From Capsaspora owczarzaki ATCC 30864 (taxonomy: Eukaryota > Opisthokonta > Filasterea), in the NCBI RefSeq assembly GCF_000151315.2, contig NW_011887303.1, positions 134,001 through 198,000 on the forward strand: a stretch of DNA of 64,000 nucleotides, written 5' to 3'. The position numbers were made by a program, and so were the translations under genes. The notes under the pieces are model-generated. The model was not told the DNA's origin and did not search any database. It saw only the letters and a program-made list of their open reading frames with translations. Shown here piece after piece: positions 34,809 to 37,115 of the stretch (positions are counted from its first letter, which is position 1; every line of letters begins with the position of its first letter).

Positions 34809-35162
34809 ATCGCATGCGTGTCCGTCCGTTCATGCCTCTTGCAAGACTTTCTGTGTGTTTTTTTTTTTTGTTTTTTCTGTGCTCCTTCACTGTGATGCCT
34901 GTTTTAATTCGACGAGGCTTGTTTTTTGTTTTTTTTTTTTTTCGAGCAAAAGCACCAACTGTTCCACCAAAAGGTCGACGACGGGCACAAAGTCTTTCAG
35001 TGTGAGACTGAACAAGAGAGTGAGGCAAATTGCGACCACAGCACACCCACAACTCCCGAATAGTTGCAACTGCACAAGTGCTCGTCCATCAACATTGTGT
35101 ATAGGTCGAGCTGGTGGCGCCACGACGACTTTGAGTTTTTGGTGATTTCGTTTGTCTCCGCT
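34809..35162. other. 3' flank of the LRR gene
   Basis: 354 bp with two T-rich tracts (34859-34876, 34920-34942). No gene seen. It ends at the left target-site copy (CCGCT, 35158-35162) of the inserted element. Confidence 0.5.
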
Positions 35163-35293
35163 TCTAGCCCGACTTGTACTGTTCGACTGCAAGACTGCAC
35201 GCAAACTTCAAACAAATTCCATAATCTTTTTTATGGGGAGGGTTTGCCAAAATCAGTGCAAAATCAGTGGGAAGACCATCCGGACACACACAA
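35163..35293 (+). repeat. left copy of 131-bp direct repeat
   Basis: Matches 36922-37052 with one mismatch (CCATAATC versus CCACAATC). Just beyond it, AACAGCCGTCCCC equals the reverse complement of bases found just inside the right end, so the following loop segment appears inverted here. Confidence 0.9.
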
Positions 35294-35516
35294 CAGCCGT
35301 CCCCGGGAACTTTGCCAGTCTTTGTGTACGCTATGACATTAGTCAAATCCTGCTTCGTGAACAGGCGCTTGGAAATTGGGTTGATGTTCATCCTCAGTGC
35401 TATATGATAGCGGAGAGAAAGAACTCGCTGCGGAGTCCCATGGTCCAAGCCTCGATCCTCAAAAATACACGTGTTTATGATACAATGAGCACCGAACAAG
35501 TCAAACATTTGCAAAA

Positions 35517-36505
35517 CTAGCGTCGGCCGATGAGATCGGCCATCTCGATGATGCTGTTAAGATCCTTTTGCGCACGCAGAGCGTATGCTTCCGGCAGCTT
35601 GGTCATATAAGCCTTGAGCTCATCGGGAGTCTTGTGAGCGCTAGCATGCGTGACGGAGTGGCGCTCAGTGCGAAGCCAGTACGCGACCATGAAGCTGCGG
35701 AATTCCCACATGGTGTCTGTGAAGTGTTGCTTCAGTTGCTTGATTTCCTCGTCATCATCGTCCCTGATTGTGTTCGAAACTTCAGCCAGGCGGTCGTTCG
35801 ACAATAAAGCGGGAGAGTAGCGCCCACGCCTGTGAAGGTCTTGTCACACGCACGGTAGGCCTTGAAGTTGGCATCATCCTCGGGAAACGCTTCGTCCAGA
35901 ACGTGGTTCACAAGCGTGCACATGGAATCTCCAAGATTGAGGAGAGCTTCCTTCTTGTCCGCCTGAGCCTTGAACTGATCAAAAGCGGTCTTGAGAGCAG
36001 CAATCTCTGCAACCACCTGAGTCTTGAACCGATCAAAAGAGCCAGCTTGCTCAACGATCCTGGCCCTCAAATTGACGATCTCTGACGCTTGAACAGCAAG
36101 CTGGGCTTCCAACGCCTCCACTTTCTGGAGAAGAGTGTCTCTCTCGGACGACGAGAGTTGTCGATTTTGAGTGACAAGCTCGCGATTTTGAGTGGCAAGG
36201 TTGCGATTGCTCGCAGAATCTGTTTCGATCTCGGCGTTGGACTGAAGCTGTTTGAGAAGCTTTCTTTGACTGAGAATAACACTCTCAAGCTCTTTAACGC
36301 GGAATACATGCTGATCTGTCGTTGTGACGAGATTAGCTTGCAGGGCTGCTTTCTCCGCCTCAAGAGCTTTGCGAGAACGCTCGCAGCTCTCGTGGCATTC
36401 TTCCAGTTGCTGACGAAGGGAATCAATTGAATCAGCAGCGTCGCCGAGAGGTGATGATGTGTGTGTCGAACCGCTTGGTGAGACCATTTGATATGGGGAG
36501 CTCAT
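35517..36505 (-). CDS. coiled-coil protein carried by the inserted element
   Basis: Two exons, 36505-35854 and 35779-35517, joined by a 74-bp intron (GTGCGT...GAAG) that restores one frame of 304 residues. Residues about 25-190 are a long heptad-like coiled coil (SLRQQLEECHESCERSRK, KVEALEAQLAVQASEI). A helical C-terminal part follows with TMWEFRSFMVAYWLRTERH and ends ADLIGRR. No DNA-binding or catalytic motif was recognised. Both ends lie inside the element bounded by inverted ends, so the gene probably moves with it. It could be an accessory protein of the element, a captured host gene, or a structural protein of an unknown element class. The intron acceptor GAAG is weak, which is the main doubt about the model. 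Confidence 0.6.
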
Positions 36506-36921
36506 CTGTCAATCACGAAGTCGGAGAATCTGTCGCATAGAACATGTTAGTATTCATCGGATTCAACAGAAAGCAGTGGGTGGTGCAATGCGAGATGTGC
36601 TGGAGGAGGCAAGGTGAAACGGAAGGTAGGGATGGATTTTTTTTTGTTTGTTTTTTGCGTTTGTTTCCGTTTGTTTGCGTGGGTCGTCTGCTGGCTCAAA
36701 GCCAGCTCAAACACAGAAAAGAAACAAGTCACTAGGGTGTCATCAATATGAACCAACCTACTCAAGGCGAAATGAACGAGGCACCGTACAACAGGAGTGT
36801 AGAAAGACTGCGTTTGGTGAATCTGCACTTTTTCAAATCAAAAATTGGAAATTGCGCCACCGTTGCTTTTATTGACAATCAGCTGAACTTGCAACTCATT
36901 TGACTGAGCAACAAGCCCGAC

Positions 36922-37110
36922 TCTAGCCCGACTTGTACTGTTCGACTGCAAGACTGCACGCAAACTTCAAACAAATTCCACAATCTTTTTTATGGGGAGG
37001 GTTTGCCAAAATCAGTGCAAAATCAGTGGGAAGACCATCCGGACACACACAATCTGCTGGACCCTCGAAGAGGGGACGGCTGTTTTGTGTGCAGTCTAAG
37101 TCGGGCTAGA
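36922..37110 (+). repeat. right copy of direct repeat plus right inverted end
   Basis: Starts TCTAGCCCGACTTG and ends AAGTCGGGCTAGA, so it looks like a 189-bp MITE on its own. However, its left neighbour (AGCCCGAC) does not match the CCGCT on its right, while CCGCT does match the left flank of 35163. It is thus better read as the right part of the larger element. Confidence 0.8.
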
Positions 37111-37115
37111 CCGCT

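What the first reader, a model, noticed from the sequence alone, without database searches (positions are those of the whole stretch)
35158..37115. A 1.95-kb insertion with 13-bp inverted ends and a perfect 5-bp target duplication carries a coiled-coil gene but no known transposase
Seen: TCTAGCCCGACTT at 35163, its exact reverse complement ending at 37110, and CCGCT on both outer sides. Seen: a 304-residue two-exon coiled-coil gene is the only gene inside. Known: 5-bp duplications are made by Transib (TIRs start CACAATG) and by many LTR-type integrases (ends TG..CA); neither terminal sequence fits. Inference: a mobile element of undescribed type or a non-autonomous carrier, inserted fairly recently.
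Basis: partly seen in the sequence, partly recalled or inferred. Interest (0 to 1): 0.75.

Follow-up and report, generated by a model that had tools for sequence, protein, structure and literature searches.

The report
Gene-carrying member of an unclassified transposon family
The segment is a real piece of jumping DNA that carries a damaged coiled-coil gene between the ends of a small mobile element found in dozens of places in this genome; no known jumping enzyme has been found for the family, and three longer members carry an unusual ATPase/nuclease-like gene instead.

Summary
In detail: 13-bp inverted ends at 35163 and 37110, CCGCT on both sides. The element is not alone. Its exact end occurs at 23 places in the 27.46-Mb genome (reversed control 0); family matches fall at 46 places on 16 of 29 contigs. 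Of 23 end-to-end spans examined, 20 are 133-207 bp (MITE-sized); 9 have an exact 5-bp target duplication, none 6 or more (swapped-flank control 1 of 504). So this is a DNA-transposon family and the window segment a non-autonomous, gene-carrying composite: its right end is itself a complete 189-bp MITE, and its left end repeats 131 bp of it in direct orientation (130/131). The coiled-coil gene is not two-exon but frame-shifted; a C11 paralogue has one open frame. Three longer members with perfect duplications (C1 AGTGC, C3 GGTTT, C4 GGTTT) carry a P-loop NTPase gene with Crinkler/RHS-like motifs; no transposase was recognised. In all four composites the duplication fits the outer ends. The part of the published transposon survey that I read for the likely host (Capsaspora, inferred) gives no DNA transposon with 5-bp duplications. 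Boldest open reading: the NTPase/nuclease-like protein mobilises the family.

The parts
35158..35162 (.). left copy of the 5-bp target-site duplication, CCGCT
   Evidence: read directly; exact 5-bp match of outer flanks
35163..35175 (+). left terminal inverted repeat TCTAGCCCGACTT
   Evidence: 23 exact copies genome-wide
35163..35293 (+). left arm: direct repeat of bases 1-131 of the right-hand MITE (130/131 identical)
35326..35394 (-). short conserved coding-like box (MNINPISKRLFTKQDL...), ATG at about 35391; recurs beside other family members and NTPase genes
35732..36505 (-). 5' part of the coiled-coil gene (257 codons from ATG)
   Evidence: coiled coil in the predicted model of the C11 paralogue
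35517..35804 (-). 3' part of the coiled-coil gene in another frame (C-terminal domain)
36887..36916 (+). decayed copy of the left arm, just inside the right-hand MITE
   Evidence: local alignment score 20, 0 of 500 shuffles reach it
36922..37110 (+). complete 189-bp MITE forming the right end; has its own left TIR at 36922-36934
37098..37110 (-). right terminal inverted repeat
37111..37115 (.). right copy of the 5-bp target-site duplication, CCGCT

Best explanation
The 1948-bp segment is a non-autonomous, gene-carrying composite member of a DNA-transposon family with ends TCTA(G/C)CCCGACTT and 5-bp target duplications. Shown: the ends, the duplication, the multi-copy family, the layout [left arm][short coding box][coiled-coil gene, frame-shifted][decayed arm][complete MITE], and three further composites whose duplications also fit the outer ends. 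Inferred: the outer two ends were recognised by a transposase supplied in trans, which inserted the whole unit at CCGCT. The gene belongs to old family members (it keeps the same neighbours in a C1 copy and partly in a C11 copy); young MITE ends were added later by insertion, gene conversion or gap repair.
For: 23 exact ends versus 0 for the reversed pattern; 31 DNA matches to the 189-bp MITE; 46 places on 16 contigs merged from four searches. Exact 5-bp duplications at 9 of 23 spans, 0 of 23 for 6 bp or more, 1 of 504 swapped-flank pairs. Pairing every end with every facing end within the fetched stretches (up to 3 mismatches, 100-9000 bp): 9 exact of 135 pairs, 0 with flanks shifted outward by 7 bases. 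For the window, the outer flanks match 5/5 and those of the inner MITE alone 3/5. C3 (3864 bp, GGTTT), C4 (8215 bp, GGTTT) and C1 (3856 bp, AGTGC) match at their outer ends, while single MITE units inside C3 and C1 do not (0/5 and 1/5 in C3, 1/5 in C1). The coiled-coil copy on C1 shares left arm, box and gene in the same order at 80% over 798 bp.
Against: No transposase identified. 14 of the 23 spans lack an exact duplication, 3 of them matching 4 of 5 bases. The 130/131 identity of the two arms can also be explained by in-place repair. The C1 NTPase element was seen by eye after a stricter test had missed it and was then measured; its right end is decayed. C3 and C4 share the same 5-mer, so they may not be independent insertions. 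No strain or empty-site data. Neither other coiled-coil locus has a duplication that I could establish; the C11 copy has no detectable TIR and the C1 copy no detectable right end.
Confidence: 0.76

Rival explanations
1. A 189-bp MITE inserted first at CCGCT; a break inside it was then repaired by copying the gene segment from another family member, ending back in the MITE by microhomology and so duplicating its left arm. The 1948-bp unit never moved as such.
For: Left arm and inner MITE arm are 130/131 identical while the gene region is 68-82% identical to its relatives. The inner junction reads CAAGCCCGAC/TCTAGCCCGACTT, repeating part of the end, next to a decayed older arm. The outer duplication would be kept.
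Against: Three other composites also have their duplications at the outer ends, which is more simply explained by transposing composites, although the same repair history could apply to each.
Confidence: 0.22
2. The P-loop NTPase/nuclease-like (Crinkler/RHS-like) protein encoded in the C1, C3 and C4 members is the family's own mobilising enzyme.
For: It is the gene shared by three members with perfect duplications; C3 and C4 share it at 90% over 2.3 kb up to the same terminal repeat. Walker A GNPGxGKT and an E, a D and QMT are invariant in 8 of 8 aligned paralogues. The survey part that I read gives no DNA transposon with 5-bp duplications in the likely host.
Against: No recognisable DDE or other transposase domain; dN/dS 0.43-0.76 in five of six pairs and 1.09 in the pair that includes C1, whose match holds a stop. 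One search gives 17 matches, about 15 gene copies; only C1, C3 and C4 were found inside bounded members, and the fetched stretches at C6, C9, C15 and C17 gave no bounded pair. The nuclease fold could not be verified.
Confidence: 0.16
3. The coiled-coil gene is a captured host gene, as in Pack-type elements, mobilised between two MITE ends.
For: The C11 copy has an open 345-codon frame and no detectable TIR.
Against: The C11 copy also has the short box and a decayed arm of the same family, so it looks like an old member; protein searches found the gene or a piece of it at 4 loci.
Confidence: 0.2
4. Remnant of an LTR retrotransposon, or chance repeats.
For: Direct terminal repeat of 131 bp; LTR elements of the likely host also make 5-bp duplications.
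Against: Ends are inverted and lack TG..CA; the short form occurs many times with the same inverted ends; chance excluded by controls.
Confidence: 0.02

Closest known systems
MITEs (miniature inverted-repeat elements) and Pack-type gene-carrying elements (recalled)
   Same: short multi-copy form with TIRs and fixed-length target duplication; longer copies carry genes
   Different: no known autonomous partner; the window copy has a complete MITE as its right end and a direct repeat at its left; the carried gene looks element-borne rather than host-derived
The 14 DNA transposon families described for Capsaspora owczarzaki (Carr and Suga 2014, PMC4007536; outline with abstract, one find query and part 1 of 3 of Results seen)
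   Same: same genome if the host is Capsaspora (inferred)
   Different: their target duplications are TA (pogo, Tc1, Cobalt), 3 bp (CACTA) or 9 bp (Com, MULE); only its chromoviruses make 5 bp
Crinkler/RHS-type (CR) NTPase + REase proteins (Zhang et al. 2016, known through passages of PMC5289972; the paper itself was not held)
   Same: P-loop NTPase followed by a C-terminal region with invariant E, D and QxT; short N-terminal header exon; many diverged copies
   Different: profile support is below threshold (nSTAND3 best E 0.00062, Trypano_RHS best E 0.021); here three copies lie inside TIR elements with 5-bp duplications
Bacterial composite transposons such as Tn10 (recalled)
   Same: genes flanked by copies of a short element, outer ends used
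   Different: flanking units are MITEs without transposase; one unit may lack its inner end

Membership tests
TIR DNA transposon | inverted terminal repeats shared by many copies | tested here: met
   23 exact copies, control 0; 14-row alignment
TIR DNA transposon | target-site duplication of fixed length | tested here: met
   9 of 23 exact at 5 bp, 0 of 23 at 6 bp or more, control 1 of 504; 9 of 135 facing pairs, shifted control 0
TIR DNA transposon | a transposase gene in some member | tested here: inconclusive
   none recognised in the members examined; three bounded members carry an NTPase gene; not every copy's surroundings were fetched or annotated
MITE | short, multi-copy, non-coding, with TIRs | tested here: met
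   met by the 189-bp right-end unit; not by the 1948-bp segment, which carries gene frames
MULE (host's Com families) | 9-bp duplication | tested here: not met
   0 of 23 at 9 bp; a MULE inserted into the C4 element has its own 9-bp duplication
Transib | TIR beginning CACWATG (recalled) and 5-bp duplication | tested here: not met
   duplication length fits, end sequence does not
LTR retrotransposon | direct repeats with TG..CA ends | tested here: not met
   ends TCTAG..CTAGA, inverted; of 19 rve matches listed, none lies within 5 kb of a listed family place, compared by eye
hAT | hAT dimerisation domain in a partner transposase | tested here: inconclusive
   no match, but none of the 14 control genomes rang either
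Crinkler/RHS-type protein (NTPase gene of C1, C3, C4) | STAND-like P-loop NTPase | tested here: inconclusive
   invariant Walker A; nSTAND3 matched in 8 of 8 members at E up to 1, below its cut-off in the table shown
Crinkler/RHS-type protein (NTPase gene of C1, C3, C4) | C-terminal REase-fold nuclease | tested here: inconclusive
   invariant E, D, QxT; predicted model too poor there (mean pLDDT 49.7, residues 280-535 under 50)

The most novel reading that the evidence does not exclude
A eukaryotic transposon family with 5-bp target duplications is mobilised by a Crinkler/RHS-like NTPase-nuclease protein: a transposon form of a protein class so far known as effectors and hot-spot proteins and proposed to descend from Tn7/Mu-like transposons (that proposal recalled). 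The window segment would be a passenger that uses its ends.
Probability: 0.14. Interest if true: 0.88.

Novelty: new variant of a known kind. Interest (0 to 1): 0.55.

Why it matters
It adds what looks like an undescribed DNA-transposon family with 5-bp duplications to a genome whose published survey, as far as I read it, lists none, and it places a Crinkler/RHS-like NTPase gene inside three bounded mobile elements in what is probably a close unicellular relative of animals. If the protein proves to act on these ends, the proposed transposon origin of that effector class becomes directly testable. If not, the family still lacks an enzyme, which is a well-defined open question.

Tried and rejected
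Two-exon gene model: rejected, because the paralogues are single open frames and the window copy differs by a net base. Chance ends: rejected by controls. MULE as the family's enzyme: the MULE inside the C4 element has its own 9-bp duplication and 3 further loci match the part of its protein used as query at 100%, so it is a later insertion. Other lone ends as long autonomous elements: L010, L011, L015, L020, L021, L023, L024 and L034-L040 were looked at in part; I recognised no transposase in what I read, but these stretches were not scanned for protein families and some are truncated copies. NTPase loci: a strict test (exact 10-mer ends) found no bounded pair around C6, C9 and C1; that test was too strict for C1, whose ends by profile carry AGTGC on both sides. 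The looser test found none in the fetched stretches of C6, C9, C15 and C17; the C6/C17 and C1/C15 duplicate pairs share about the gene region only. Relatives elsewhere: none confirmed for the NTPase in viral contigs (26 pattern stretches) or prokaryote genomes (84), nor for the coiled-coil protein in viral contigs (21). PADLOC gave only weak matches (mad8 in 7 of 8 members, best E 0.0036). PDB sequence searches gave only weak matches, mostly P-loop or coiled coil. Predicted models were too poor for fold searches, so none was run. hAT search uninformative. Paper searches: 'Crinkler' with 'terminal inverted repeats' gave 3 papers, seen as listing only; the listings showed no title that describes this family; Zhang et al. 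2016 was not held.

Full report
Observation. A third exact copy of the end lies at 36922-36934. In the whole genome (27,456,641 bases, 29 contigs, no name given) the end occurs 23 times exactly and the reversed pattern not at all.

Anatomy. The stretch 36922-37110 is a complete 189-bp element of its own kind: 31 matches in the genome, itself included. The left end, 35163-35293, repeats its first 131 bases in the same direction with 130 identical. Between them lie a short conserved coding-like box on the minus strand (about 35394-35326), the coiled-coil gene on the minus strand (36505-35517) and a decayed copy of the left arm at 36887-36916 (0 of 500 shuffles reach its score). The gene is not two-exon. 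Its C11 paralogue is one frame of 345 codons, its C1 paralogue one frame of 201; the window copy is split over two frames, and reading the C1 and window sequences side by side shows a net one-base difference. I describe this as broken; a sequencing or assembly error cannot be excluded.

Family. Four searches (23 exact ends, 31 DNA matches, 27 left-arm and 21 right-arm patterns at up to 3 mismatches) merge to 46 places on 16 contigs; several are parts of one longer element, and such counts are lower bounds. For 23 candidate spans with both ends at hand (two share the window's right end) I compared the flanks: 20 are 133-207 bp long, the others 274, 1948 and 8215. Nine have an exact 5-bp duplication (CCGCT, AGACA, CCTTT, AGATT, GGTTT, CCAAA, ATGTG, CAGAC, AAAAA), 0 have 6 or more, 3 more match 4 of 5, and 11 match 3 or fewer. 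Swapping flanks between spans gives 1 of 504. The AAAAA case is A-rich and weak on its own.

Composites. I then paired every end (up to 3 mismatches) with every facing end 100-9000 bp away in the fetched stretches: 9 of 135 pairs are exact at 5 bp, against 0 with the flanks shifted outward by 7 bases. Eight of the nine are among those above; the new one is C3, 3864 bp, GGTTT on both sides. A further element on C1, 3856 bp, has AGTGC on both sides; its right end is too decayed for that test, but its ends were set by the family profile and its flanks measured. So four long composites have duplications at their outer ends: window (CCGCT), C1, C3 and C4. The MITE units that were measured inside them do not match on their own: window 3 of 5, C1 1 of 5, C3 0 and 1 of 5. 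C3 and C4 share the 5-mer GGTTT, so they may not be independent.

Relatives of the carried gene. DNA matches to the inner region: a C1 copy at 82% over about 650 bp, which continues into the left arm and box in the same order, a C11 copy at 68% over 1.5 kb, and short pieces at C3, C7, C2 and C4. The C11 copy keeps the box and a decayed arm at its other side but no detectable TIR. Nei-Gojobori dN/dS is 0.62-0.78 for three of four coiled-coil comparisons and 1.99 for the fourth, which rests on about 8 synonymous changes: weak or no constraint. The predicted model of the C11 protein is a long coiled coil with a low-confidence helical C-terminus.

The NTPase-bearing members. At C4:1763636-1771850 two family ends 8215 bp apart are flanked by GGTTT. 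Inside sits a MULE-type insertion of 5144 bp with a 9-bp duplication AAGGTGAAA; its protein matches the MULE transposase domain at 7.5e-12, and 3 further loci match the query part of it at 100%. The rest is about 3.06 kb: left arm, the short box, a decayed inner arm, an apparently two-exon gene (two open frames) and a complete MITE as the right end, the same plan as the window. The C3 locus shares 2324 bp of this at 90%, ending at the same terminal repeat, with other flanks. The C1 element has a complete MITE at its left, the NTPase gene, and a right arm. The protein has an invariant Walker A and invariant E, D and QMT positions across 8 paralogues, resembling Crinkler/RHS proteins by motif (recalled). 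Profile evidence is below threshold: nSTAND3 in 8 of 8 members, best E 0.00062; Trypano_RHS in 3 of 8, best E 0.021, aligned around the P-loop in the rows shown. The predicted model was poor, so the nuclease assignment is not verified. The genome has 17 matches, about 15 gene copies, 5 of the 17 matches with a stop inside; bounded members were found for C1, C3 and C4 only. Six pairs give dN/dS of 0.43 to 0.76 (five) and 1.09 (C1 with C15).

Host and literature. The host is probably Capsaspora owczarzaki; this is an inference from genome size, 53% G+C in the window and a MULE with a 9-bp duplication, and no call names it. The survey of that species (PMC4007536: outline with abstract, one find query, part 1 of 3 of Results) gives TA, 3-bp and 9-bp duplications for its DNA transposons and 5 bp for chromoviruses. 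I therefore think the family is undescribed there, but I did not read the rest of the paper or its supplements. A search for MITEs with Capsaspora gave 2 papers, seen as listing only.

Mechanism. Most likely (0.76 for the account as a whole) the segment is a non-autonomous composite whose outer ends were used by an enzyme supplied in trans. Whether the 1948-bp unit moved as such, or a MITE acquired the gene in place by repair, stays open (0.22 for the latter). Which enzyme moves the family is not known; the NTPase protein is the boldest candidate (0.16).

Scores. The window segment itself is a new variant of a known kind. Interest rests on the family without a known enzyme and its association with the NTPase gene.

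Noticed in passing
L010:5016-5095 and L013:4938-5017: A second short repeat family (ends TGTTACACCC, about 80 bp) nested inside copies of the first.
   Followed up: no
L029:520-643 and L031:1236-1374: A third short repeat beginning near TGTTATGATC and ending near ATAACA, 82% alike at two loci.
   Followed up: no
L029/L027, C4:1763951-1769112: A 5144-bp MULE with a 9-bp duplication inserted into the C4 element; three other loci encode a 100% match to the queried part of its protein.
   Followed up: partly
L021:291-4953 (C11): A receptor-kinase-like gene (by my reading) lies between two copies of the MITE, but the outer flanks do not form a duplication.
   Followed up: partly
C17:122800-136400: A cluster of four matches to the NTPase gene, one region 92% identical to the C6 copy over 1.9 kb.
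   Followed up: partly
L031:1648 and 4164 (plus); L041 near 2400 (minus): The short box INPxSKRxFTKQ recurs beside NTPase genes without detected family ends, on both sides of the C6 gene; its function is unexplained.
   Followed up: partly
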